Shown here: positions 1 through 58,922 of the stretch, piece by piece
Layout: each line of letters starts with the position of its first letter
Position numbering within the stretch: the stretch's first letter is position 1
Assembly (NCBI GenBank): GCA_019633425.1
Contig: WSUB01000027.1
Coordinates: 1 to 64,000 of the forward strand
Reading direction: 5' to 3'
DNA length: 64,000 nucleotides
From: Tulasnella sp. 424
Lineage: Eukaryota > Basidiomycota > Agaricomycetes > Cantharellales > Tulasnellaceae
Program-made: the position numbers and the translations under genes
Notes under the pieces: model-generated
What the model was told of the DNA's origin: nothing
What the model saw: the letters and a program-made list of their open reading frames with translations, nothing else
The model's database searches: none

Positions 1-1584
1 CCCGAGTTGCTGAAGCCGGTGATACCGCTGTAGTTGATCGTGCCAGCCTTTCCACCGGTAGCAGTCAAGCCAGACCAGTTCCAAGTGCCAGTGCAAGAGC
101 CAGAGCCGCAGTTGACGGCAACACGAGTGGCACTGGAGTCGACTGAGACGGTATTGCCCGAGATGAATTGAACGTCCTGCAAGCGTGATGGCGTTGATAC
201 ACAGCTAAACCGCGCTCAAAGTGGGAGAAGCTTACGCTGAGGATAACACCAGTTCCGGGAGTGCCGAGGGTATCGGGGTAGCTCTGGTCGATGAGAACAC
301 CGTACTCGTGAATGGTGGAGAGGGTGTTGCCTATCGCAAGAGGTGAGTGGCAAAGCCTCCCCCAAACCCAAGTGGCTATCCCTTTTCAACTCACCAGTAT
401 AGTAGACACCAGAGACGGTAGCACCTGTAGCATCAGACTTGGTCTTGATACGGAGACCGTTGTCGGAGTCGGTGACAGTGTTGCCGATGATGTACACGTC
501 GCTGACAGTGACGTCGCTTGAGATGGAGCCAACGGAAATACCGTGACCACCGCTGCACTTGTTGTTTTGGAAAGTGATGTTGGAGCCTGAGTTGATGGCA
601 AGACAGTCGTCTTGGTTCATAATGACGCTGAAACGAAGACGCCCGAACAAATCAGCGTTCAGTAAGTCAAATGTGGGCCGACCTCTCCCACCTGTCCTTG
701 ATGATGACGTTGCTCGCCGAGACGTCGAAACCGTCAGTGTTGTGACCAGCTGGGTCGCTACCAGAGGCGGCGTTGGGTGCGTCACCAGCAGCTATGTCAC
801 AGATTGTGAGATCCTCGTCATCAGGGAGCAGTGGAGGTTCGCCTACAGTCATCAATAGTGATGCTCGAGATGGTCAAACCTCCGGTGCCGCCGACAGAGA
901 AAACGTGAACAGGGGAATTGAGGATCTTCAGGTTCTACGCTCAGCGAAAGGTGGAAGTTAGCCAATGTCCCGAGCGATTGCAGCCTCCCAACGCACGGTG
1001 AAAGTACCAGAGTTCTTGACCTTCATAAACTTGGGCTTCGTGACACCACCGTTTCCACCTTGACCGTCCTAAAAGATCGACGTCGTCAGATCCATTATAG
1101 GGTCGTCTTCGGAACAGCGTTGAACCTACCCAGTAGGAAGGACCGTTGCCGTTGAAGGTGTGGCCATTGCCGTTGACTGGACATCCAACCCAATAAGCCT
1201 TCACTCGGGTGGCATGCTTTTCACGCTACTCACAAACAACGTTGGTACCACTAAAGTCGGAGAATGGATCAGTCATTCCCAAGTTCGACTGCGATTCGCA
1301 ACTACTCACGCAATTTGGAACAAAGGGCCCGCCCAGTTAGAGACGCCGAAAGTGATGTCTCCCAAGAGGTTGACAGTGGTTCCGGACGCCAGTTCCAAGT
1401 CAAAGGTCGAGCCGCCGGGGACGGTGAAGGAGCTGATGTTGATGGTTGTGCACTTGATAGCGGCCGCAACGTCATCCAAGCTGGCAATGGTGCCAGTGCA
1501 TCGCTTGGACGCGGGAGAAGCCGTAGCGGAGACGGTGAGAGCCAAGAAAGTCGCGAAAAGGAGTGAAGAGGGAGTCGAATGCAT
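1..1584 (-). CDS. Endopolygalacturonase PG1 (GH28), 3' end off the window
   Basis: Secreted enzyme that would hydrolyse the alpha-1,4-galacturonan backbone of pectin. The ATG at 1582-1584 opens a signal peptide (MHSTPSSLLFATFLALTVSA) followed by a KR pair before CTGT, as in fungal prepro-polygalacturonases. Exon 1 ends at 1310 (FQIA, donor GTGAGT); a 17-nt exon follows at 1234-1250, then the exon encoding NGNGHTFNGNGPSYW. Family motifs are visible: NTDGFDV near 722-744, NQDD near 605-620, GHG near 540-550 and RIK near 441-450. These hold the catalytic aspartates and histidine of GH28. The last codons seen read GITGFSNSG and are still open, so the C-terminus lies beyond base 1. It diverges there from the GIINYP of PG2 and PG3, and its upstream region is mostly unlike theirs. 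It is therefore an older paralogue than the PG2/PG3 pair. Confidence 0.9.
1234..1250 (-). other. 17-nt microexon of PG1
   Basis: On the minus strand this exon lies between CTTTAG and GTGAGT. It joins GC of exon 1 to TC of the next exon and gives A-G-T-N-V-V-F-N-G in frame. Without it the exons on either side do not join in frame. PG2 and PG3 have an exon of the same size at the same place. Confidence 0.75.
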
Positions 1585-2570
1585 GGTTGATGGATGTATA
1601 CAGGTCTCCGGTCTGAAAGATTTGCTTGACTGGCTAGCTAGCTGGCTTGCAAGGTTGAGGATGGAATAGTTTTTGATCCCTACCCAGCTGCTTTTATGCT
1701 GCGCTTTTATCAAGACTGCTACAGCGTCCGGAAGTGGTGGGCCGCCCCGCTCCGCTGCGTGGCATGACGACAGCGATATTATACCGGAGGTGTTGTGTGC
1801 TGCGTCCCCAATCAGTCCCTGTGAGGGTTGGGTAAAGTGGCGACCAGCGAGGGCGGTGTGCTAAATTTAGAACGGCTAGGTGCGCCGCCGGTTGAATCTC
1901 GCGACGCTAAGAAGACGACGCCCCTCACGGTTTCCAGAGTGTGACCTGCAGCATATTGGGTAGCAATTCTTGCCACAGAGCTTCTTGGTGCTTCCTGGAG
2001 CCTACAAGGCTATTTTGAGGGCATGAAACGCGGTGGAAACGGCCTGCAAACGGGCCGGATATGGTCTGCCATGACCGGGGGAAGCGCTGCTGAAGGCGGG
2101 TCTTCACTAGTCTGATTGGCTGGAGACTAGGCTAAAGCCATCGAAATTTATGTGGCGGCGGCATTTTGGCTTCAGAGCGCGAGGGTCGGGTTAGATGCTC
2201 TGGGCCGTCGTCTCATGCGTAAACGTCAAGGAAGGGGTTTACGTCTTGGCGTCAACGATTACCCGCTGAGCAGATGTGCATGCAAGCAACCAATGAGTCT
2301 GATGTCGTCGCAGCATAGACGGACCGGTATCTAAATAAAGCAGTGAGAAGGGAGTGCGCGAAGGTGTTTCTCGGAAGATCGGTCTTACTTTACGGCCCAT
2401 CGACGACTCCCATAGAGGTACGCAACTCTAGAAGCAACAACGGCTGAAGTTTACGCTCTCATGAGCATTCAACGTAGCAGATAGAATTATACGCCGAGGG
2501 TCTGAGCAAATATACCGGCGAATCTAGCCCTCCGAAAAAGGTGGAGATTGGCCTCGCGGACTCGGCCGAA
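1585..2570. other. Region upstream of PG1, no gene seen
   Basis: About 1 kb between the start of PG1 and the left edge of the PG2 duplication unit. It presumably holds the PG1 promoter, including the conserved block at 1861-1906. The ORFs here are short and unlike any family I recognise. Confidence 0.5.
1861..1906. promoter_or_regulatory. Conserved PG upstream block (copy 1)
   Basis: Palindrome CTAAATTTAG, then about ten variable bases, then a GC-rich core GCCGCCGGTTGAATCTCGC. The same arrangement occurs upstream of PG2 and PG3, although the rest of the PG1 upstream region does not align with theirs. It lies about 277 bp upstream of the PG1 start. A role as an activator-binding site for pectinase induction is inference. 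Confidence 0.45.
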
Positions 2571-2972
2571 CACTGAGGCAACAAACCTCTCCTATGCAAT
2601 AAGATCCCGTTCTAGGTGTTGCAGGCATTTTTCAATTTGGAGCGCACATATATAGCGCCCCTATGATCTGCAACTGAAGACTGCGACGTCTTAATATGGC
2701 AAGCGTGTCTTGGATGGTCAGATCACGACAGGAACACACGGTACCACAAAGAAACCTAGGCGTGGAAGGCGCCCGCCATACCTTCTTTCGCCCCTTTATT
2801 AAGTTCTACAGCCTACGAGGGTTCGTGATGTGCTGGTTTTCCCGAAGTGGAACCACTCGGCGCGGCCAAGGCAAGCATCATCTTCGGCAATTGAAAAAGA
2901 GAGTGTATATTCCACATTATTGGATAATCCATGTGCCTAGCGAGTAAAGAGCCGACTGCGCTTATCCTGCGC

Positions 2973-3158
2973 TTAAGCTGCCACGCATTGGCTGTACGGA
3001 AGGAAGGAGAGGTAAGTGGCCGAAATGTCGAGAGAGGGGAGAGGAGCATCCTGACCTATACCAATTGTTGCTGTAGACGCTGTGAATGGTCAGGAGATGT
3101 CAGCACAATGCAAGAATCATGCTTCGCAGCTATGTTCAGTCAGCCTACCATTGACATC
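2973..3158 (-). pseudogene. Fossil CBM1 3' exons downstream of PG2
   Basis: Two former exons survive behind the PG2 stop: 3056-3079 and 2973-2991. They are separated by an intron with GTCAGG donor and TACAG acceptor. Joined, they would read VYSNNWYSQCVAA and then stop, which is the end of a CBM1 (C...N.WYSQC). The preceding acceptor (CATTCACAG) and the donor ATG/GTAGGC are also intact. The PG2 reading frame stops at 3157-3159, so this is untranslated. The equivalent exons in PG3 are live. Confidence 0.85.
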
Positions 3159-4768
3159 ATGGGTAGTTGATAATGCCGCTGTAATTGATAGTGCCAGTCT
3201 TGCCACCAGTGGCCGTCAAACCGGCCCAGTTCCATGTTCCCGTGCAGGAGCCAGAGCCACAGTTGACTGCGACACGAGTGGCGCTTGAATCTACAGAGAC
3301 GGTGTTGCCGGAGATGAATTGGACGTCCTAAAGGGATAAAGCAATGAGTAAAAGGGAAGAGAAGGCAACTTCGGCCTGCTTTGAAGAGCCGACTTACGGT
3401 AACAATGACGCCAGTGCCAGGCGTGCCGAGAGTGGAAGGATAGCTTTGGTCAATGAGCACCCCGTATTTATGAATGGTATTGACAGTGTTGCCTGCAGAC
3501 ATCCACGGTCAGAACGCGCTTTAGGGTTTCTGAAACGCACACTTACCGGTATAGTGGATACCGGAAACGGTGGCACCGGTAGCATCGGCCTTGGTCTTGA
3601 TTCTCAGACCGTTATCCGAGTCGGTGACGGTGTTACCGGTGATATATACACCATTAACAACGGCGTCGGAGGAGATGGATCCGATCGAGATGCCGTGTCC
3701 ACCACTGCACTTGTTGTTTTGGAAGGTGATGTTGGTTCCCTTGTTCACAGCCAAGCAATCGTCTTGATTCATGACTACGCTGCACATATACGACAGGATC
3801 AGGTAAGCGGAAGAATTTCTACACCCAGTCTTCGTTGACAGCTACGTACCAATCCGTGATCAGAAGGTTATGGGAGCCAACGTCGAAACCATCCGTATTG
3901 TGTCCCGCGGCTTTGCCGGCCGAGTTGCTGTTAGGTTGATCACCGAGGGCTGCGGGGGTTTCTGACTTCATAAATCGCCCTAGGGAGGGTGTCTAGTGCT
4001 AACTCACAGTCATCGATGGTAACCTTGGAGATGGTCAACGGTCCGTCGGTGCCAACCGAGAACGTGTTGATGGGCGAGTTTAAAACTTTCAGGTTCTGTG
4101 AATGGTAGAGACGTCAAGGAGTTCTTAAGGTCAAGCGGGGTTGCAGAGAATTTCCTTAGAACTGAAGGCCAACGAACCGTGAATGTGCCCGTCATCGTGA
4201 CCCTCAGGAACTTTGGTTTAGTGGTGCCGGTTCCACCTAGTCCATCCTACAAAAAACTCTCTTGAGTCCATTTCCTCGCCGTATCTGAGAGCGACTGTGC
4301 CATACCCAATATGAAGGGCCCTGGCCGTTGAAGGTATGGCCGTTTCCATTGACTATCGGTGTCCAAGTTAGTAAATAACGCTTCCGTACATGGAGAGGAA
4401 TTCAAAGCCTACATTTGATGTTGCTTCCACTGATAGAGTGTTCGAGATAATCACTAAACCGCTCGAAGCTGGGTAACTAGACAATCTTATACTTACGCGA
4501 TTTGGAAAAGAGGTCCTGCCCAGTTGGATACACCAAAAGTAACGTCACCTAAGACGTTGACAGTTGTGCCACTTGCGAGGTTCAAGAGGAAGGTCTTCCC
4601 AGCGTCGACTGTGAAAGAATTGATGTTGATAGTAGTGCATTGAATGGCGGCCGCGACATCAGCAAGACTGGAGATGGTGCCAGTGCATCGCTTTCCGATA
4701 GGTGCCGGAGTTGCAGAGGCAGTAATCGCCAAAAAGGCAGCAATTATTGCGATTGGTCTCGAATACAT
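3157..4768 (-). CDS. Endopolygalacturonase PG2 (GH28), catalytic domain only
   Basis: Secreted pectin-backbone hydrolase, read leftward from the ATG at 4766-4768. N-terminus: signal peptide MYSRPIAIIAAFLAITASA, then PIGKRCTGT with a KR processing site. Exon 1 ends at FQIA near 4496, followed by a 17-nt exon at 4413-4429. Later exons carry NTDGFDV, NQDDCLAVN, GGHGISIGS and RIKTK, the GH28 active-site motifs. The protein ends GTINYSGIINYP and then TGA at 3157-3159. That stop is created at the junction of a deletion that removed the Thr-rich linker and half of a CBM1 still present in PG3. The mature enzyme should thus be a compact pectinase without a cellulose anchor. The divergent partner upstream is the RGP1 remnant. 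Confidence 0.9.
4413..4429 (-). other. 17-nt microexon of PG2
   Basis: Flanked by CTATCAG and GTAGGC on the minus strand. It joins GC of exon 1 to TC of the exon NGNGHTFNG, giving A-G-S-N-I-K-F-N-G. Confidence 0.75.
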
Positions 4769-5778
4769 GTTTGGTCGAGTCTAGGTTAATCTTGGGGCTG
4801 AGCGAAAGGAGGTTTCGATTTCTCTCTGTCGGTATGGCTTTGGCATTTATCCCTCAGACGACAATTGGACCGGATCCAGCTGGACCGCTCGTGCCGCCAT
4901 TTGGCTACCTCAATAGCGACATTGCACCGGTTCCGCAGTGGGTGCATTGCCAAGCAATTCTCTTGGTGAGAAATTGGGAGCGGGCTGGTCTAAATTTAGT
5001 GCTTCGGTTGCCGCCGGTGGAACCTCGCATTGTCGAGAAGGGAGATATTCCAAGGAGCTCAGCGACCGGCCACCAAAGAAGTGACATCGAAGGGCGTGAC
5101 GAAGCGTTGCCAAGACCTTCTGGACGTGAATCGCTCAAAAGTGACCTTGTAAGACGGGCCGCGCGAGGCTGGAATGAGACGAGAGGCGTCCGGGCGAATA
5201 GAAAGAAAGGCCGAGGGGAGAAAGATCAACAGGATGACAGCAGCCTACAAAAATAGCTACAGTATTGCTTCGGTGTCTTCGTTGGCTTCTTGGGGGGGGG
5301 GAGGGAGTGGGGTTGGGCGTCGATCATATCATCAAATCCGTCGTGAAGAGGGACCGGCCCGTGGGCGCAAGGCTTGGCTCTGCAAAGAGAAAAAAGTTCA
5401 TGGAGAAAACGACTCGACAAGTGAAAGCACAGAATAAATACGTGTTGGAGTATTCCAAGCCTTTTTGGGGGGGTGGTTGTTGACGTCGATCGCTCGACGG
5501 CATCCTGAAAATCCCAATGGAGGTATACGGTCGTTTAGACCGCAAGGAAATGAGTCTCTAAATACCTTTTCAGCTCTCGATGTTTTCCTGGTGATGTGGC
5601 TTGCTTCAACAGAGTGCACTGGCTCGGCCTGGCTGGTGAGGGTTGCGGAGAGGGTGGCGTTTTGACCGCAGGCGTTCGCCCTGACGGAGTGACGTGAAGG
5701 GGATGAGTTCAATTCCTCCGACAGCCACCACCGACGCTGCATCCAATCTGAAGGACAGCAAGACGGCACCCAACAGAC
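4769..5778. other. PG2 / RGP1-remnant intergenic region
   Basis: Copy of the divergent promoter region between PG3 and RGP1 (8595-9432). It has the conserved CTAAATTTAG block, two homopolymeric G runs (near 5293 and 5467), and about 150 bp at 5352-5504 that is absent from the other copy. I see no gene in it. Confidence 0.5.
4990..5034. promoter_or_regulatory. Conserved PG upstream block (copy 2)
   Basis: CTAAATTTAG, a short spacer, then TGCCGCCGGTGGAACCTCGC, about 222 bp upstream of the PG2 start. It is shared with PG3 by duplication and, more tellingly, with the diverged PG1 upstream region. Confidence 0.45.
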
Positions 5779-6006
5779 TCCCTTCCGCGACGGCGAGGAT
5801 GGGAGAGGCGGCAGTAGCAATCATCCATCAAGGGCATCGTTATCCACGTCGAGCCATTGCAGGCCGCTTTCTTCGCCGGCGATACGTTTTCCGCCAAAAT
5901 TACATTCACCAATACTCATCTCCCATCAACACTTTCATCGGCAACCCAACACCTCAGACTGCTATCCCAGACAGACCTGATACTACCGCCAATGTCGTAT
6001 TCAAGC
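5779..6006 (+). pseudogene. Truncated RGP1 5' fragment
   Basis: Copy of the first ~230 bp of the RGP1 gene at 9433, created by the tandem duplication. It is dead for two reasons. A 7-bp deletion between two CTC repeats removed the start codon (CAGACTCCCTTCC against CAGACTCATGGCTCCCTTCC). The copy also stops at the duplication edge after GTCGTATTCAAG, losing about 90 percent of the gene. The residues IHVEPLQAAFFAGDTFSAKI can still be read in one frame. Confidence 0.85.
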
Positions 6007-6406
6007 AATACCGAGGCAACGAACCTCGTCTATGCAATAAGATCCCGTTCTAGGCATTGCAGGCATTTTCCAATCTGGAACGCACGTATATAACGCCCCT
6101 GGTGATCTGCAACTGAAGACTGCGACGTCCAAATATGGCAAGCGTATCTTGGATGGTCAGATCACGGCAGGAACACACGGTACCACAAAGAAACCTAGGC
6201 GTGGAAGGCGCCCGCCATACCTTCTTTCTCCCCTTGATTAAGTTCTACAACAGGGTTCGTGATGTGCGGGTTTTCCCGAAGTGGAACCACTCGGCGCAGC
6301 CAGGACAAGCATCATTTTCGGTAATTTAAAAAGAGAGTGTATAGTCCACATTATCAGATAATCCATGTGCCTAGCGAGTAAAGAGCCAACTGCGATTATC
6401 CTGCAC

Positions 6407-8594
6407 TTAAGCTGCCACGCATTGGCTGTACGGAAGGAAGGAGAGGTAAGTGACCGAAATGTCCCGAGAGGGGGAGGGGAGCATCCTGACCTGTAAAAAT
6501 CGTTGCTGTAGACGCTGTGAGCGGTCAAAAGATGTCAGCACAATGTAAAGATCATGCTTCGCGACTATGTCCAATCGGCCTACCATTTATATCCAGAGAC
6601 GCAAGTAGTTGGGCCAGCTGAACGAAGGTATCAGCACTCAACTTTCTCTAGAGATATCAGCGAGATGAAGCTCACTGTAACCGCTGCCACCGCATTGACC
6701 GTAGGCAGGAACGGTGCCGGTAGACTGAGATTAAAGACCAGGATGTTTAGCAAACTAGACCTATCGACGTATTACACTAAGCCGACTCACAGCAGCGCTC
6801 GAAGTGGTCGTGGTTGTGGTGGATTTAGTGCTGATAATCAGGAGTCGTGGTTTAGTACAAGTTGGTTTTTGGTGGCTCGTTATAGGGCTCACGTGGTGGT
6901 GGAGGACTTCGTAGTGGTGGTCGACGTTTTGGTTGTGGTGGTCGTCTTCGAGGTTGTAGAGGTAGCAGTGACAGATGGGTAGTTGATGATGCCGCTGTAA
7001 TTGATGGTGCCAGTCTTGCCACCAGTGGCCGTCAAGCCAGCCCAATTCCATGTTCCCGTGCAGGAGCCAGAGCCACAGTTGACTGCGACACGAGTGGCGC
7101 TTGAATCGACAGAGACGGTGTTGCCAGAGATGAATTGGACGTCCTAAAGGGATAAAGCAATGAGCAAAAGGGAAGAGAAGGCAAGTTTGGCCTGCTTTTG
7201 AAGAGCCGACTTACGGTAACAAGGACGCCAGTGCCAGGCGTGCCGAGAGTGGAAGGATAGCTTTGGTCGATGAGCACACCGTATTTATGAATGGTATTGA
7301 CAGTGTTGCCTGCAGGCATTCACGGTCAAAACGCGCGTTAGGGGTTTCTGAAATGCACGCTTACCGGTATAGTGGATACCGGAAACGGTGGCACCGGTAG
7401 CATCGGCCTTGGTCTTGATTCTCAGACCGTTATCCGAGTCGGTGACGGTGTTACCGATGATATATACACCATCGACAACAGCGTCGGAGGAAATGGATCC
7501 GATCGAGATGCCGTGTCCACCACTGCACTTGTTGTTTTGGAAGGTAATGTTGGATCCCTTGTTTACAGCCAAGCAATCGTCTTGATTCATGACAACGCTG
7601 CACATATGCGACAGGATCAGGTAAGCGGAATAATTTCTACACCCAGTCCTCTTTGACAACTACGTACCAGTCCGTGATCAGAAGGTTATGGGAGCCAACG
7701 TCGAAACCATCCGTATTGTGTCCCGCGGCTTTGCCGGCCGAGTTGCTGTTAGGTTGATCACCGAGGGCTGCGGGGGTTTCTGACTTCATAAATCGCCCTA
7801 GGGAGGGTGTCTATTGCTAACTCACAGTCATCGATGGTAACCTTGGAGATGGTCAACGGTCCGTCGGTGCCAACCGAGAACGTGTTTATGGGCGAGTTTA
7901 GAACCTTCAGGTTCTGTGAATATTAGAGCGGTCAAGGAGCGCTTAAGGTTAGGCGGGGTTGCAGAGAGCTTCCTTAGAACTGAAGGCCAACGAACCGTGA
8001 ATGTGCCCGTCATCGTGACCCTCAGGAACTTTGGTTTAGTGGTTCCAGTGCCACCTAGTCCATCCTAACGAAAAACTCCCTTAAGTCCGTTTCCTCGTCG
8101 TATCTGAGAGCGACTGTGCCATACCCAGTACGAGGGGCCCTGACCATTGAAGGTATGGCCGTTTCCATTGACTATCGGTGGTCAAGTTAGTAAGTAAAGC
8201 TTCCGTACGTGAGGTGGGATTCAAAGCCTACAGTTGATATTGCTTCCACTGATAGAGTGTTCGAAGATAATCACTAAACCGCTCGAAGCTGGGTACTTGG
8301 ACAATCTTATACTTACGCGATTTGGAAAAGAGGTCCTGCCCAGTTTGATACACCAAAAGTAACGTCACCTAAGACGTTGACAGTTGTACCACTTGCGAGG
8401 TTTAAGAGGAAGGTCTTCCCAGCGTCGACTGTGAAAGAATTGATGTTGACAGTAGTGCATTGAATGGCGGCCGCGACATCAGCAAGACTGGAGATGGTGC
8501 CAGTGCATCGCTTTCCGATGGGTGCCGGATCCTGAGTTGCAGAGGCAGTAAAGGCCAAAAAGGCAGCAATTATTACGCTGGATCTCGAATACAT
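6407..8594 (-). CDS. Endopolygalacturonase PG3 (GH28) with Thr-rich linker and C-terminal CBM1
   Basis: Secreted pectinase with a cellulose-binding tail. The ATG at 8592-8594 opens signal peptide MYSRSSVIIAAFLAFTASA, then PIGKRC. Exon 1 ends at 8317; a 17-nt exon is at 8232-8248. GH28 motifs NTDGFDV, NQDDCLAVN, GGHGISIGS and RIKTK are present. After GIINYP the frame continues into SVTATSTTSKTTTTT and a second Thr/Ser block, then CBM1. The CBM1 is built from four exons, 6676-6724, 6584-6617, 6491-6514 and 6407-6425. Together they give YGQCGGSGY, TGPTTCVSGYK and CVYSNDFYSQCVAA, with the usual aromatic residues and cysteines. The short CBM1 exons break simple ORF reading, but all donors and acceptors are canonical. 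The module would hold the enzyme on cellulose while it cuts adjacent pectin (family knowledge). Confidence 0.88.
8232..8248 (-). other. 17-nt microexon of PG3
   Basis: Lies between CTATCAG and GTAGGC on the minus strand. It completes A-G-S-N-I-N-F-N-G across the junction in frame. Confidence 0.75.
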
Positions 8595-9432
8595 GTTGGG
8601 TCGCGTCTAGGTTAACCTGGGGGCTGAGCGAAAGGAGGATTCGATTTCTCTCTGCCGGTTTGGCTTTGGCATTTATCCCTGAGACGACAATTGGACCGGA
8701 TCCAGCTGGACCGCTCGTGCCGCCATTTGGCTACCTCAATAGCGACATTGCACCGGTTCCGCGGTGGGCGCATTGCCAAGCAATTCTCTTGGGAGCGGGC
8801 TGGACTAAATTTAGTGCTTTGGTTGCCGCCGGTGGAACCTCGCAATGTCGAGAAGTGAGATATTCCAAGGATGCTCGGCAACCGACCAGCAATGAAGTGA
8901 CATCGAAGGGCGTGACAAAGCGTTGCCAAGGCCTTCTGGACGTGGATCGCTCAAAAGTGACCTTGTAGGACGGGCCGCGCGAGGCTGGAATGAGACGAGA
9001 GGCGTCCGGGCGAATAGAAAGAAAGGCCGAGGGGAGAAAGATCAACATGATGACAGCAGCCCACGGAAATAACTACAATATTGCTTCGGCGATCCTCGTT
9101 GGCTTCTTCGGGGGGTTGGGCGTCGATCATATCATTAAATCCGTTGTGAAGAGGCTGAAAATTCAATGGAATATACGATCGTTAGAAAATGAGTTTCTAC
9201 ATCCTTTTTCAGCTCTCAAGATTTTTCCTGGTGATGTGGCTTGCTTTAACAGAGTGCACTGGCTCGGCCTGGCTGGATTCAGTGGTGAGGGTTGCGGAGA
9301 GGGTGGCGTTTGACCGCAGGCGTTCGCCCCTGACGGAGTGACGTGAAGGGGATGAGTTCAATTCCTGACCGACAGCCACCACCGACGCTGCATCCAATCT
9401 GAAGGACAGCGAGAACGGCACCCAACAGACTC
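8595..9432. promoter_or_regulatory. Divergent intergenic region PG3 / RGP1
   Basis: 838 bp between two divergently transcribed starts, so it must hold both promoters. Besides the conserved PG block I see no clear TATA box on either side. Confidence 0.5.
8805..8849. promoter_or_regulatory. Conserved PG upstream block (copy 3)
   Basis: CTAAATTTAG, spacer, TTGCCGCCGGTGGAACCTCGC, about 211 bp upstream of the PG3 start and inside the 838-bp divergent region shared with RGP1. Confidence 0.45.
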
Positions 9433-12400
9433 ATGGCTCCCTTCCGCGACGTTGAGGATGGGAGAGGCAGCAGCAGCAATCCATCAGGAGGCATCGTTAT
9501 CCACGTCGAGCCATTGCAGGCTGCTTTCTTCGCCGGCGAGACGTTTTCCGCCAAAATTACTTTCACCAATACTCATCTCCCGTCAACGCTTTCATCGGCA
9601 ACCCAACACCCTCAGACTGCCATCCCAGACAGACCTGCTACTACCACCGGTGTCGTATTCAAGCATAAGCGCGGAGCTCATTCCATCGCATATGGCTCAG
9701 CGCCTCTGGCAAACCCACCCACCTCTCCAGGCACTCCAAATTACCTCAGCCAGTTCTCAATGTCCACTTCAAACCTACATGGTCCCGCTACCGCTAAACC
9801 GACTTCCGGAACAAATGCTATCGGTCCAACTATCACGCGCAAGGGGCTCATTGGCGCGGGCGGCATCAGTAAAGCTAAGAGCACGCTGCCGCCCGACGTT
9901 AACGAAAGGATGAGAGCGGTCTCGAAGCGTTCTCTCTCCGTGGACGTCAGTCCTGTACTCTCAAGGGCTGCGGGAGGTTCTCCTATGCTGCGCGACGAAA
10001 GTAGATTTGGTTGTGAGTTTGCCGCCGCCGAACCAGGGTTCCTTCCCATCGACGCTGTGCTGACGATTCCGCATAAACAGCGCCGCGGATACATCCACCA
10101 TCTCCACTATCCCGCTCCAGAGTGCCCTCAGCATCATCTGATGCAGGTTCGAATACCGTCACGCCAAACTCCCGAAATCCCACTGCGGCAATTCCCAAAT
10201 CCCACCCGCATGCCAGAAAAATGTCCGTGATGGACGGTTCTATGAGCGACCAAGGCTTCACGCCGAACGGATTGACCAGCAGCGCATCGTATCCTCCCTC
10301 TGGCCCCTCTTCTTCCTCATCCTCGTCGGTTCCCCAGACACCATCGTCCGCCAACCCCTTTTTATCCTCTCTAGATCCGATCACCGAGGCTCCTACTATC
10401 GCGGTTACTAACGGGACCCCACCCGCGTCTGAAGGACCGATGTCCGCTCGAGAACGGGCCTCCAGCACACCTGGACCGATATCGTCAGTGGGAGCGGTGC
10501 TTTACAGTCCCAAACCAACGCGACCGCACGAATCCAACGAAATCCTAAACGGATCCCGAGCCCGAGGGGGGAGTCACTCGGGCCACCCCGTACCAAATAT
10601 CGGACTGGGCAAACCATCAGTATCCAGCAAGCTGACTCTACAATCCGACGCTCAGCCCGGTCCAACGGAAGCCGCCCCAAACGCGAACGCTAAATCCGTA
10701 CCTCCGCGGGCTGCTTTCTCTTCTTCCTTTGCACCGCCCAATACCGAAGTCCTTCTCTGGTCATACGCACAACTCGTCGGGACAGTTGAACTCGACGAGT
10801 CAAATGGGATGGTTTCACCGGACGGAATGGCCGGTCTGCGGTCCCAACTAAACGCACTTCGAAGCGATCGAGTTATTGGAGGGGGTCGGATGGACATTGG
10901 TGCCCCAGTAACACCGAGTCCGCTAACAGGAGGTGGTTCTCGCACTCGGAGAGGGTTAATATCGAGTTTTCTTAGTGTAGGGATGGGGGGAGGCTCAACC
11001 GGACCTAGTCCAGTCAGTCCAGGAGGGGCGCTCGGGTTCGGGCTTACCGCAATCTCATCGTTTTGGAGCACTCCTGCACCATCGCCTATTGCATCCGGAT
11101 TTGGTGCGAGGTCGGCTAGTGCTGCGGTTGCCTCGCCAATGGCAGGCGTGTCAGGGGGTCTTCCGGAAACGGCCTTGCCGACGTTCGAGACCCAACCCAG
11201 TATGCTCGCGATTGATCTCAACTTAGGGCCTGGAGAGAGCAGAACTTGTGAGCCACTCTTGTAGTCGGCTAAGCTCGTTGCAGACTGACAGGAGGGATCA
11301 TTCTACTCAGACACATACTCCCTTCCACTCCCAGCCGTTTTGCCACCAACCTTCCGAGGCAAAGCAATGAAGTTTTCATATCACCTGGTTATTGGCTCCT
11401 CCCGCGCCCCATCCTCTTCCCATAATCTAACGCCACATTTTGGCGGAGATAACGCCCCCCAAAGTAAAATCATGCGCGTGCCAGTTCGCATTTACAACCA
11501 TGTCTCGGGTCAGTGCCCTTCTTCTACTGATCGTAACCATTCTGGCGCAGTCACTCACAACTATGGGCTTAAACATCGCAGTGGAAAGACCTCCATCGTC
11601 TTATGATCTCCTGTGGCCACTGACTCGGCGAAAGGCCGGTCCTGTTAAAAGTACTGTCTCTGAAGACCAGTCGCTCGTTCCCCTAAAACCTTTCGGTGCG
11701 TTGGACTGCAGTGCCCATAGCTTGAGGACTAAGCCCGGACTTACGTCGGCCACCACCTTTAGGCCCTGGAAGCGTAAAACGACCGACTCCGCGAGGAAAC
11801 GCCCTGCAGTTCGAAGAATACGCCAACCGACTGCTTATTTTGTCTCATAGAGAAGAAAGGCAACACCAACCCCACCTTGACGCCGAAGAAGACAGCAGGA
11901 GTATCGCTAACACAGTCCGTGAACATGGCGAGCGGACTGCTGGGCCCCTAATGTCCCCGCTGGCGACTCTTGGCGACCCTGAAGAGGAAATGGGTGGTGC
12001 ACTCAGTGGATGCAGGGAGAACGTGGAAATTTTAACGCGAGTTTCGAGGAAGAGTACGTGGTCCGCCCAGTTCGTTTCCTTCTACCCCACTGACGAATGC
12101 TCGTTCAGTGTCGTACGATATCAGCAAGGATGGAGTCAAGGTTGCTGTGCTTACCTTCGTCAAGACCGCATTTCGACTAGGAGAAACTGTCACGGGTGTG
12201 GTAGAGTTCAACGGTCTACAGACGCGAGGTCGTGTCCTCAAGGTGAATGAACTCGATTCACTGTTAACGGGCAACAGAATCGCTAAATAATGGGGCACAC
12301 TTGTGTTTAGTTCTCTGCTGTCCTTGAGACTCAGGAAATGCTCCCGCCGCACCTAGCGGAGCCCTCTTCCCAAGTCAGGAGCCGAGCTCTTAAGCGGGTT

Positions 12401-53778: not shown

Positions 53779-55610
53779 TTATTCTGGGGTACCAGAATCG
53801 AGCTGGAACAGTGGAACATTGACGGATCCACCAAGAGCTGAAGTGGCGTAGTTGAAGATTCCGAACCGATAGCCCATGAAAAACTCCCAACTAGTAATCA
53901 TTGTGAAGGCCGAACCGATCGGGTTGAAGTTGGTTCCATCAGTACTGTAGTGGAAGGTTGCTTGCTTTGTACCACCTGGTTGAATGTCTGCCGTAACACG
54001 TAACCAAATCGATCCTCCAGTAATGGAAACGCTGGCAGTGGTTGTTCCGGTGTTAGCAGTGCTCCAATCTGAGTTCATGGTGATGTTCGTGGCGTAACGG
54101 ACGGTGTAAGCGCCACTGTCCCGTTGAACTCCAACCCAAGCTGAGGAGTCACGAAGCAGAACAAGACCAGCACGGTCACCGTCTGTCATGTTGCTGTAGT
54201 TGAGCTTGATTGTGGCGGTGGACACTGGGCCAAGAATGCGGTGGGTGATTGTGTTACGGGCCGCGTAGAGGTCGTCCGTGACGGTTGCGGTATAGAGGGT
54301 GAGACCGTTCCTGCCGGTGGAGAATTTGGAGGTATCTGGATTGTGGTTCCATTCCCAGTGGGGGCCGATGGACCTGAAGCGGTCGGATCCGGTCGGCGAT
54401 GCGACGGATACCGCGGGGAGCGAGCTTGTGTACGAACTACCCCACGCGCCATCGACAAGCTGTTGATCGACATAATGTAAATGAATAATGCGGTGGGGGG
54501 TAACAGTACGGGGAAGGAATGACACCGCTTACAGTGAGAGCAGGGAAATCGTCAGAACCCCAAGTGATCGGTGCCATAACCGGCATTCGGCCCCCAGGAT
54601 AAGCGTCAACAAAGGCCATATAATACCATTGACCACTAGGTGTATCAATAAGACCACCTTGATGAGGATTACCAGCGCCTGAGATTGGTGGCGAGAGACT
54701 CGAAGCGAGAGCCTTGATGGTGTAATTTCCGAAGACGCTGCTGGACTTCAGGACATATTCACTCGTAGCGGGATGTGTGACCAGGATGTAATACACTCCA
54801 TTTCGCTTGTAGAACCTCGCGCCTTCGATGTATCCTGTATATGAGACGGGCTTCCACTGAGATTGGAAATGACAAATGTGACAGCTAACGCTTCACGCAC
54901 CGACGTCTAAAGGAGGACTGTAAACCTGCTGGGACACGACCTCGCTCTTGGCATCTGATGCGAGCTGGGCGACCCAGATTGTACTGTTATAAACGTACGA
55001 GACGTACATAGTCCCGCCATCGTCTACGAGCAGACCACAATCGTAGTAACACTGCAATAGTTACATCAGAAACATAGCCACAGAGCCGGTCATGGTATGC
55101 AAGGTTTTACCTTGTTGATCGTGGCGAGGCGGGACCAAGGACCAGTAACCGACGAAGCAGAATAGATATAGGACGTTGAGAAATCAATACAGCCTCCCCA
55201 ATACCAAGTGTTCTGGGTCGAGTGATAACCGAAGAACGAGGCCCAAATTCCCCGGACGTAGGCCTCACCACCAGTCAGAGAGTAGGCACTCCCAAAGTCC
55301 AAAGTTGGAACCGAGTGACCAATGTATTCCCAATTCTGCAAGTCGTAAGACCGGAGGATGGGGGCACCTGGAGAGTAGTGCATGGTAGAGGCCGAGTAGT
55401 AGTAAGTGTGGCCGACTCGGCGAATGTCGAGGTCTGCGAGATCCTCCCAGAAAACGGGATTGGTAAAGGCGCTAGTGAATGTGGATAGGACGCCGAGTCC
55501 ACTCCAAAGCATAGACAGCTTTCCTGTGGGGTCACGGAACGGGCCATGCAAGGGTGAGCCCAAGTCCCATCAAAGGCGGGCAAGCAGAAGAACGCACCGA
55601 GGCTAAGCAT
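53779..55610 (-). CDS. Secreted GH43 glycosidase A, without CBM1
   Basis: Five-bladed propeller glycosidase of family 43, active on xylan or arabinan side chains (exact specificity not readable). Start ATG 55608-55610. Exon 1 is only MLSLG; an intron near 55512-55594 follows; then LSMLWSGLGVLSTFTSA completes the signal peptide. Propeller: TNPVFWEDLADLDIRRVG (likely catalytic Asp), SYDLQNWEYIGHSVPTLDFG, FFGYHSTQNTWYWGGCIDFS, CYYDCGLLVDDGGTMYVSYV, IEGARFYKRNGVYYILVTHP (candidate acid Glu) and HQGGLIDTPSGQWYYMAFVD. A C-terminal beta-sandwich follows (HWEWNHNPDTSKFSTGRNGL; DGDRAGLVLLRDSSAWVGVQ; FFMGYRFGIFNYATSALGG). The protein ends PLFQLDSGTPE and TAA at 53779-53781, exactly where the sister gene continues into a linker and CBM1. 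Confidence 0.9.
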
Positions 55611-56671: not shown

Positions 56672-58922
56672 TTAGACACACTGCGAATAATCTGTTTGAC
56701 AAGAATGGGCGGATTCAGACACCATCGATATACAGCCAACCCAGAGAGACTCACAGTCATTCTGGTACGTGCAGGTCGTTCCCGATTCGCAGGATGTACA
56801 GCCAGTATAACCTACAGAGAGCATTTAGTGACGGGCACCAGAGTCAGAATATTTACTAGGGTGGGGCTTAGTACTTACCGATGCCACCGCACTGAGCGTA
56901 ATGCGTTGCAGTGCTACGAAAGCAGAATCGATGAGAAAGGGTGGCAATTTGTGGGTGGTGGAAGTAACTTACCATCCACCAGCAGTGGTGGTAGTGGTAG
57001 CCTTGCTGGTGGTCGTGGATGCTTTGCTGGTGAAGGTCGTGGTTGTAGTGGAAGTCTTGGTAGTGGTGGTACTGACACTGGATGGTGTGGTACCGGTACC
57101 AGAGTCGAGTTGGAACAGCGGAACATTGACGTATCCACCGAGAGTTGAGGTGGCATAGTTGAAGATACCGAACCGATAGCCCATGAAAAACTCCCAGCTA
57201 GTAATCATTGTGAAGGCCGACCCGATCGAGTTGAAGTTGGTTCCATCAGTACTGTAGTAGAAGGTTGCTTGCTTTGTACCACCTGGTTGAATGTCTGCCG
57301 TAACACGCAGCCAAATCGATCCACCGCTAATTGAAACGCTTGAGGTGGTTGTTCCGGTGTTAGCGGTGCTCCAATCCGAATTCATGGTCAGGCCCGTGGT
57401 GTAGCCGACAGTGTAAGCGCCACCGTCCCGCTTAACTCCAACCCAAGCTGACGAGTCACGAAGCAGAACGAGACCAGCACGGTCACCGTCTTTCATGTTG
57501 CTATAGTTGAGCTTGATCGTGGCGGTGGACTTGGGGCCAAGAATACGGTGCGTGATCGTGTTACGAGCCGCGTAGAGATCGTACGTAATGGTTGCAGTAT
57601 AAAGGGTGAGGCCGCTGCTGCCAGTGGAGAATTTGGAGGTATCTGGATTGTGGTTCCATTCCCAGTTAGGGCCGATGGACGTAAAGTAGTCGGCTCCGGT
57701 AGGAGATGCGACGGATACCGTGGAGAGCGTGCTTGTGTATGAACTGCCCCACGCGCCATTGACAAGCTGTTGATCGACATGATGTAAATGAAGGATGTAG
57801 TGAGGAGTAGTGGAAGAGAAAGGAATTGCATCACTTACAGTGAGAGTAGGGAAACCGTCAGAACCCCAAGTGATCGGTGCCATAACCGGGATACGGCCTC
57901 CAGGATAAGCGTCAATGAAAGCCATATAATACCATTGACCACTAGGAGTATCAACGAGACCACCCTGATGAGGATTTCCTGCAACCGAAATCGGTGGCGA
58001 GAGACTTGAAGCGAGAGCCTTGATGGTGTAAGTTCCAAAGACGCTGCTGGACTTGAGGACATATTCACTCGTTGCGGGGTGAGTGGCCAGAATGTAATAC
58101 ACTCCGTTTCGTTTGTAGAATCGTGTGCCCTCGAGGTATCCTGATTGTGATGTAGGCTGCCGGTCAGACCGCTAATGGAGAATATAACAGCGCAAGTTTC
58201 ACGCACCGATGTCTGAAGGAGGACTGTAAACTTGCTGGGACTTGACCTCGCTCTTGGCATCTGACGCAAGTTGGGCGACCCAGATGTTGTTATTATAGAC
58301 GTACGAGACGTACATAGTTCCGTCATCATCTACGAGCAGACCGCAATCGTAGTAACACTGCACAACAGTTACATTAGTGATATGACCCCAGTGCCTGCTA
58401 CCGGCATGAACGGCCTTACCTTGTTAATCGTGGCGAGGCGAGACCACGGTCCAGTTACCGACGAAGCAGAATAGATATAGGACGTTGCGAAATCAATACA
58501 GCCTCCCCAATACCAAGTATTCTTGGTGGAGTGATAGCCAAAGAACGAGGCCCAAATTCCCTGGACGTAGGCTTGCCCACCGGTCAGGGAGTAGGTGCTA
58601 CCAAAGTCCAGAGTGGGAACCGAGTGAGCAATGTACTCCCAATTCTGCAAGTCGTATGACCGGAGAATGGGGGCACCGGGAGAGTAATGCATGGTAGAGG
58701 ACGAATAATAGTAAGTGGTGCCGACTCGGCGAATATCCAGGTCTGCCAAGTCCTCCCAAAAGATGGGATTGGTAAACGCGTTAACGAAGATGGGTAGGAC
58801 GATAAGTCCACCCAAGAGCGTAGAAGGTGTTCCTGTGGCTCAAAGAATCGGGAAGGAGGGGGTTAGCTCGGTGTCGCATTTCAAGTGCACAGACCGGAGA
58901 ACACACCGAAGTTAAGCATCAT
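56672..58922 (-). CDS. Secreted GH43 glycosidase B with Thr-rich linker and C-terminal CBM1
   Basis: Paralogue of the previous gene with the same catalytic and beta-sandwich domains (FTNPIFWEDLADLDIRRVG; GHSVPT replaced by AHSVPT; HQGGLVDTPSGQWYYMAFID). Start ATG 58920-58922, exon 1 MMLNF, intron, then GTPSTLLGGLIVLPIFVNA as the signal region. After PLFQLDSGT the frame continues GTTPSSVSTTTTKTSTTTTT, FTSKASTTTSKATTTTTAGG. CBM1 exons: 56879-56913 (TATHYAQCGGI), 56755-56811 (GYTGCTSCESGTTCTYQND) and 56672-56691 (YYSQCV, stop). All introns are canonical. The six-Cys-like pattern and the Y...N.YY residues are those of a working fungal cellulose-binding module, which would tether the enzyme to cellulose. 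Confidence 0.9.

What the first reader, a model, noticed from the sequence alone, without database searches (positions are those of the whole stretch)
2973..3170. PG2 has lost its CBM1 by internal deletion and keeps the last two CBM1 exons as a fossil
PG2 and PG3 are tandem duplicates. PG3 runs from GIINYP into a Thr-rich linker and full CBM1. PG2 jumps from AACTACCCA directly to a piece of the CBM1 exon (ATGTCAATG/GTAGGC), and the junction itself creates the TGA stop. Behind it, exons 3056-3079 and 2973-2991 still encode VYSNNWYSQCVAA with intact splice sites. This polarity, a relic left behind, argues for loss in PG2, not gain in PG3. About 380 bp of PG3 (6594-6974) is missing. The result is a pair of pectinases differing by one domain, caught soon after the event.
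Basis: seen in the sequence. Interest (0 to 1): 0.75.

Follow-up and report, generated by a model that had tools for sequence, protein, structure and literature searches.

The report
Pectinase copy that lost its CBM1
In an orchid-root fungus, one of two neighbouring copies of a pectin-cutting enzyme gene has lost the part that grips cellulose and still carries the remains of it behind its stop codon, and other wall-degrading enzymes in the same genome show similar losses.

Summary
PG2 (4768..3157, minus) and PG3 (8594..6407) are tandem GH28 copies. 381 bases of PG3 (6594-6974) are absent from PG2 at 3158/3159, the stop TGA (3159-3157) spans the join, and the last two CBM1 exons persist behind it. 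Loss in PG2 holds without the relic: PG4 on contig C68 has the same split CBM1, and the nearest proteins of two other Tulasnella isolates keep the linker. PG2's catalytic domain stays constrained (dN/dS 0.09): a domain died, not the gene. 'Caught soon after' is not supported: the relic diverged like introns (6/51 versus 41/448 sites) and more than catalytic exons (44/1077). The genome is almost certainly Tulasnella sp. 424. New: PG2 is not alone. A GH43 tandem copy in this window lost linker and first CBM1 part by a similar deletion, and 8 of 19 aligned GH11 copies end at or shortly after the catalytic domain with CBM1 remains behind; 11 of 19 stay open. Recurrent CBM1 shedding is the interesting part; selection is untested.

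The parts
3157..4768 (-). PG2: GH28 polygalacturonase gene, 9 exons, 363 aa, ends ..SGIINYP + TGA; no linker, no CBM1
   Evidence: the public protein FRC04_005840 (P0002) also ends at INYP
3157..3159 (-). TGA stop spanning the deletion join (3158/3159; 381 bp of PG3, 6594-6974, absent)
3149..3156 (-). last 8 nt of the second CBM1 exon (PG3 exon 12), followed by donor GTAGGC
3056..3079 (-). relic third CBM1 exon (24 nt, VYSNNWYS part), acceptor CAG and donor GTCAGG intact
2973..2991 (-). relic last CBM1 exon (19 nt, ..QCVAA + TAA), identical to PG3
6407..8594 (-). PG3: GH28 + Thr-rich linker + CBM1, 14 exons, 447 aa
6594..6974 (-). stretch of PG3 with no counterpart in PG2: linker, introns 9-11, first CBM1 exon and most of the second
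2569..6006 (.). first unit of the tandem duplication (holds PG2)
6007..9665 (.). second unit of the tandem duplication (holds PG3)
1..1584 (-). PG1: more distant GH28 copy, cut by the contig start at the border to its linker
53779..54525 (-). GH43 copy A, 3' coding part ending LDSGTPE*; second case of linker + first CBM1 part missing (break 53787/53788, about 330 bp of copy B absent)
56672..58102 (-). GH43 copy B, 3' part: GH43_C2 domain, Thr linker, CBM1 exons (exon ends read by eye)

Best explanation
A GH28-linker-CBM1 endopolygalacturonase gene was duplicated in tandem (unit about 3.4 kb). In one copy, PG2, an internal deletion joined the end of the catalytic domain to the second CBM1 exon. 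The join put a stop codon right after the catalytic domain. PG2 is now a plain, untethered GH28 enzyme, still under purifying selection. The last CBM1 exons are a relic in its 3' UTR, drifting at about the intron rate. PG3 keeps the tethered form. The two relic splice junctions lie 8 and 32 nt behind the stop, so by the usual 50-nt rule (recalled) the transcript should escape nonsense-mediated decay. Shown here: the deletion, its polarity, and constraint on the catalytic domain. Supported but on few sites: loss of constraint on the relic. Inferred: secretion as a diffusible pectinase, stable mRNA. The event is one of several of this kind in the genome (GH43, GH11).
For: Single 381-bp gap between otherwise collinear copies. 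CBM1 and linker in PG3 and PG4, linker in the 408 and UAMH 9824 proteins. dN/dS 0.0124/0.14 = 0.09 over 359 codons, bootstrap 0.04-0.16; a second method gives 0.0134/0.1148. PG2-side and PG3-side amino-acid changes are about equal in number. Relic 6/51 differences, 5 PG2-derived, versus catalytic 44/1077 (p 0.02) and introns 41/448 (p 0.61). Junctions 8 and 32 nt after the stop. Parallel losses: GH43 copy A with dN/dS 0.16; 8 of 19 aligned GH11 copies.
Against: No reads or transcripts were available, so a misassembly cannot be excluded. The Thr linker is a place where assemblies break: C190 itself starts at PG1's linker border, and the partial 408 and 427 proteins end inside theirs. The relic is only 51 nt, so its rate is imprecise; leaving out the 8-nt piece, 4/43 against 44/1077 gives p 0.11. 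The UAMH 9824 orthologue is annotated as ending inside the linker and the 408 record is cut there, so neither shows a CBM1 itself. A 143-bp identical tract (3853-3995) hints at gene conversion, which would lower the apparent age and dN/dS.
Confidence: 0.88

Rival explanations
1. PG2 shows the ancestral single-domain state and PG3 gained linker and CBM1.
For: Most GH28 relatives listed lack CBM1: 4 of the 120 listed (of 782 found) carry both Pfam domains.
Against: PG2 keeps CBM1 exons behind its stop; PG4 has the same split CBM1; 408 and UAMH 9824 proteins have the linker.
Confidence: 0.02
2. Assembly artefact: the repetitive linker was collapsed in PG2.
For: The contig starts at PG1's linker border and related partial proteins end in their linker.
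Against: The join is not between repeat copies, and bases that distinguish PG2 from PG3 lie within about 20 nt on both sides of it. The missing piece includes non-repetitive CBM1 exons and introns.
Confidence: 0.06
3. PG2 as a whole is a young pseudogene and the CBM1 deletion is just its first visible lesion.
For: PG2 lost a domain; the units are only 6.7% diverged.
Against: Nine exons with GT-AG introns, no stop before the terminal one, dN/dS 0.09, no excess of changes on the PG2 side.
Confidence: 0.05
4. The relic exons are still used, as an alternative C-terminal tail through splicing or stop read-through.
For: Splice sites intact, frame open in the relic.
Against: The stop lies in the same exon upstream of the donor; relic changes are intron-like; openness is expected in 34-58% of neutral simulations at 10-5% change; the part of the domain with two of its four cysteines is gone.
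Confidence: 0.04

Closest known systems
Serendipita indica chitinases SiCHIT / SiCHIT2 (PMC13039781; abstract and passages seen)
   Same: Close paralogues in a root-associated basidiomycete, one without its carbohydrate-binding module; the authors find this consistent with duplication followed by domain loss, with specialised roles
   Different: GH18 and CBM5, not GH28 and CBM1; functions were tested there; here a DNA relic and breakpoints are seen, but no function was tested
GH28+CBM1 polygalacturonases of Tulasnella (P0004 T. calospora, P0005 UAMH 9824, P0006 sp. 424, P0015 sp. 332)
   Same: GH28, Thr-rich linker and C-terminal CBM1, as in PG3 and PG4 (P0006 is the PG4 protein)
   Different: PG2 has lost linker and CBM1
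Single-domain GH28 endopolygalacturonases, many from Rhizoctonia, Ceratobasidium and polypores (116 of the 120 relatives listed, some Tulasnella among them, show no Pfam CBM1)
   Same: PG2's present architecture
   Different: PG2 reached it by loss and still carries CBM1 exons
Loss of CBM1 and wall-degrading enzymes in ectomycorrhizal fungi (PMC7550596, passages seen)
   Same: Loss of CBM1 in symbionts
   Different: That is reduction of gene sets between species, and T. calospora is said there to keep large sets; here single domains are lost between tandem copies

Membership tests
GH28 polygalacturonase (PG2) | Pfam Glyco_hydro_28 above cut-off | tested here: met
   224 bits, E 3.3e-66, profile 1-311/324
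GH28 polygalacturonase (PG2) | Catalytic motifs NTD, DD, GHG, RIK (recalled) | tested here: met
   NTDGFDV, NQDDC, GGHGIS, LRIKT in the translation
GH28 polygalacturonase (PG2) | Enzyme activity on polygalacturonate | not testable with these tools
   no assay
CBM1-bearing enzyme | Complete CBM_1 domain, in PG3 and PG4 | tested here: met
   29/29 positions, 52.3 and 51.9 bits; four cysteines each in the translations
CBM1-bearing enzyme | Complete CBM_1 domain in PG2 | tested here: not met
   no PF00734 in PG2; first part of the domain deleted, rest behind the stop
Domain loss after tandem duplication | Copies in tandem with collinear flanks | tested here: met
   units 2569-6006 and 6007-9665
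Domain loss after tandem duplication | Outgroup has the domain | tested here: met
   PG4; linker in 408 and UAMH 9824
Domain loss after tandem duplication | Remaining domain still constrained | tested here: met
   dN/dS 0.09, bootstrap 0.04-0.16
Domain loss after tandem duplication | Relic no longer constrained | tested here: inconclusive
   6/51 vs 44/1077, p 0.02; without the 8-nt piece p 0.11
Specialised untethered enzyme (as SiCHIT2) | Different expression or role of the two copies | not testable with these tools
   no RNA or protein data

The most novel reading that the evidence does not exclude
In Tulasnella sp. 424, tandem duplication of wall-degrading enzyme genes is repeatedly followed by loss of the cellulose-binding CBM1 at or near the same place, the end of the catalytic domain, by independent mutations in at least three enzyme families (GH28 deletion; GH43 deletion; GH11 nonsense of two kinds plus deletions). 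The result is sets of tethered and untethered enzymes, and the parallel losses are selected, for instance because an orchid symbiont gains from diffusible pectinases and hemicellulases that do not stay on host cellulose. The recurrence is seen here; selection is conjecture.
Probability: 0.25. Interest if true: 0.6.

Novelty: new member of a known kind. Interest (0 to 1): 0.36.

Why it matters
PG2/PG3 is a clean natural pair differing mainly by one binding domain, with breakpoints, polarity and a relic. With the GH43 and GH11 cases it offers several parallel CBM1 losses in one genome, a way to ask whether symbiotic fungi shed cellulose tethering by drift or by selection. Catalogues that count CBM1 domains can miss such relics and split-exon CBM1s: the exon-wise Pfam scan of the genome (150 of 278 candidates scored, list cut) did not list PG3's or PG4's CBM1.

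Tried and rejected
Gain in PG3: rejected by PG4, the related proteins and the relic. Relic as evidence of recency: rejected, since openness is expected under neutrality and divergence is intron-like. Microhomology: PG3 has TCTG on both sides of the break, and GH43 copy B has GTACC on both sides, but neither derived join is a simple join at those words; left as a weak hint of end joining. Retention of PG3/PG4 intron 9 would give an immediate stop and a CBM1-less form, but other phase-2 introns of these genes do the same, so it carries no weight. C426:150-170 kb, a CBM1-rich stretch, showed no tandem pair of this kind by BLAST. GH11: dN/dS of the catalytic part is 0.60 in truncated and 0.55 in CBM1-bearing copies, and of the CBM1 exon 0.70 and 0.51 (28 and 55 pairs). 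So constraint on the truncated GH11 enzymes is not strongly shown and the difference in the CBM1 exon is modest. One of the 8 truncated copies has a stop in the catalytic exons and one a 2-nt length difference at its edge. Two of five GH43 copies (L025, L026) are broken in the catalytic part as well and were not counted as domain loss. Sampling: the GH28 case was given, GH43 was met because it lies in the window, and C417 was picked because one search flagged stops in its CBM1 frames; this is not an unbiased survey and no rate can be drawn from it. Of the 27 rows, 19 loci were aligned; 8 (second pieces or short fragments) were left out. The automatic alignment of the GH43 3' ends misplaced the deletion; the BLAST pieces and reading by eye were used instead. 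Paper searches; none of their listings showed a report of CBM1 loss in Tulasnella polygalacturonases, but beyond two papers only titles and starts of abstracts were seen.

Full report
WHAT IS THERE. The window is bases 1-64000 of contig C190 (328,593 bp) of a 46.8-Mb assembly. The predicted protein P0010 (FRC04_005839, Tulasnella sp. 424) lies on a contig of exactly 328,593 bp and matches PG1. P0002 (FRC04_005840) matches PG2 and ends, like my model, at INYP; it is 10 residues longer through one other intron boundary and is listed on two contigs, the longest 331,352 bp. So the genome is almost certainly Tulasnella sp. 424 (Cantharellales). T. calospora is named as an orchid symbiont in PMC7550596 (passages); that sp. 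424 lives so too is assumed from the genus.

PG2 (4768..3157, minus) and PG3 (8594..6407, minus) lie in tandem units 2569-6006 and 6007-9665, with 216 differences in 3241 aligned sites. PG3 is a 14-exon gene, all introns GT-AG and 55-82 nt: GH28, a Thr-rich linker, and a CBM1 split over four exons. PG2 has nine exons and GH28 only. The alignment shows one long gap, 381 bp of PG3 (6594-6974) absent at PG2 3158/3159: the linker, introns 9-11, the first CBM1 exon and most of the second. PG2's TGA (3159-3157) spans the join. Behind it lie 8 nt of the second CBM1 exon (3156-3149) and the last two exons (3079-3056, 2991-2973; VYSNNWYSQCVAA) with intact GT and AG ends.

POLARITY. PG4 on contig C68 (L009 7860..5641), 92% identical to PG1 over 2.3 kb, carries linker and CBM1 in the same exon pattern. 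The closest outside proteins are P0001 (sp. 408) and P0003 (UAMH 9824), 94-95% identical to PG2. Both run through INYP into the same SVTATSTTSK linker, though neither record reaches a CBM1: one is cut, the other's model stops inside the linker. Of the four PG2/PG3-type sequences whose record reaches this point (PG2, PG3, 408, UAMH 9824), only PG2 lacks the linker; the 427 record stops earlier. Of 120 relatives listed (782 found), 4 carry both Pfam domains, all Tulasnella. Loss in PG2 is secure. The tree puts PG2 with PG3, but with support of only 0.49, so whether the duplication followed the split from 408 and UAMH 9824 is open.

A DOMAIN DIED, NOT THE GENE. Over 359 codons dN is 0.0124 and dS 0.14 between PG2 and PG3, ratio 0.09 (bootstrap 0.04-0.16, 300 draws; a second method gives 0.0134 and 0.1148). 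Read against 408 and UAMH 9824, three substitutions and one two-residue gap fall on the PG2 side, three substitutions on the PG3 side, and four are undecided (my reading). PG2 shows no speeding up.

AGE. The relic differs from PG3 at 6 of 51 sites: with PG4 as outgroup 5 are PG2-derived, 1 undecided, none PG3-derived. That is more than the catalytic exons (44/1077, p 0.02) and like introns 1-8 (41/448, p 0.61). Without the 8-nt piece it is 4/43 (p 0.11 against the catalytic exons). Intact splice sites and frame are no sign of youth: neutral simulations kept them in 58% of runs at 5% change and 34% at 10%. The loss is therefore probably about as old as the duplication, on few sites. A 143-bp identical tract at 3853-3995 may reflect gene conversion and would blur dates.

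HOW IT WORKS. PG2 should be secreted as a plain endopolygalacturonase and PG3 as one tethered to cellulose (CBM1 function recalled, not tested). PG2's relic junctions lie 8 and 32 nt after the stop, inside the 50-nt limit usually given for nonsense-mediated decay (recalled), so a normal transcript level is expected.

NOT ALONE. In the same window a GH43 tandem pair shows the same kind of event. Copy B has Thr linker and CBM1. Copy A (86% identical over 1752 aligned positions) lacks about 330 bp at 53787/53788, ends LDSGTPE*, and keeps a decayed last CBM1 exon behind (exon ends by eye). Two coding pieces of it have dN/dS 0.16 against copy B (0.11-0.25, 312 codons). A further copy on C24 (L024) keeps an intact-looking CBM1, so A is the derived one; two others on C24 (L025, L026) are broken more widely. 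On C417 a GH11-like array (named from its sequence, by eye) has seven copies. With other loci, 19 copies were aligned (of 27 rows). In 11 of 19 the linker is open and the CBM1 frame has no stop. In 8 of 19 (seven on C417, one on C27) it is cut: TAG in two, TGA in five, and in one a deletion over that place, its frame ending after a shortened linker. Of these 8 relics one still reads as a full CBM1, the rest are decayed, and the C27 copy has also lost linker and first CBM1 part. Catalytic exons are open in 6 of the 8, but dN/dS is high in both groups (0.60 truncated, 0.55 open), and that of the CBM1 exon differs only modestly (0.70 and 0.51), so continued function is less certain there. C417 was chosen because its CBM1 frames held stops, so this is a set of cases, not a rate; a second stretch looked at, C426:150-170 kb, gave none.

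WHAT IS KNOWN. The closest published case seen is the Serendipita indica chitinase pair, where a paralogue without its CBM5 has a host-related role (PMC13039781, abstract and passages). PMC7550596 (passages) reports that T. calospora keeps large wall-degrading sets while two ectomycorrhizal Cantharellales have reduced sets, CBM1 included. PG2 is thus a new, well-resolved member of a known kind; the recurrence across three families in one genome is the part worth following.

Noticed in passing
53779-54525 and 56672-58102 (-), break at 53787/53788: GH43 tandem pair in which copy A lost linker and first CBM1 part by a deletion of about 330 bp and keeps a decayed last CBM1 exon; parallel to PG2
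   Followed up: yes
G000 C417:150000-169999 (L028, L029) and C27:89892-90711 (L046): GH11-like copies cut at or shortly after the end of the catalytic domain with linker and/or CBM1 remains behind; 8 of 19 aligned copies truncated, 11 of 19 open
   Followed up: partly
C24 loci L025 and L026: Two GH43-CBM1 copies broken in the catalytic part and, in L026, in the CBM1
   Followed up: partly
window 1; proteins P0001 and P0008: Records of several Tulasnella isolates break at or in the Thr linker of these polygalacturonases, a warning for domain counts
   Followed up: no
3853-3995: 143-bp stretch identical between PG2 and PG3 in a 6.7% diverged unit; possible gene conversion
   Followed up: no
P0028 (Pleurotus djamor): GH28 protein ending in an incomplete CBM1-like stretch (YGQCGGSGWTGATDGVG), perhaps another partial case
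   Followed up: no
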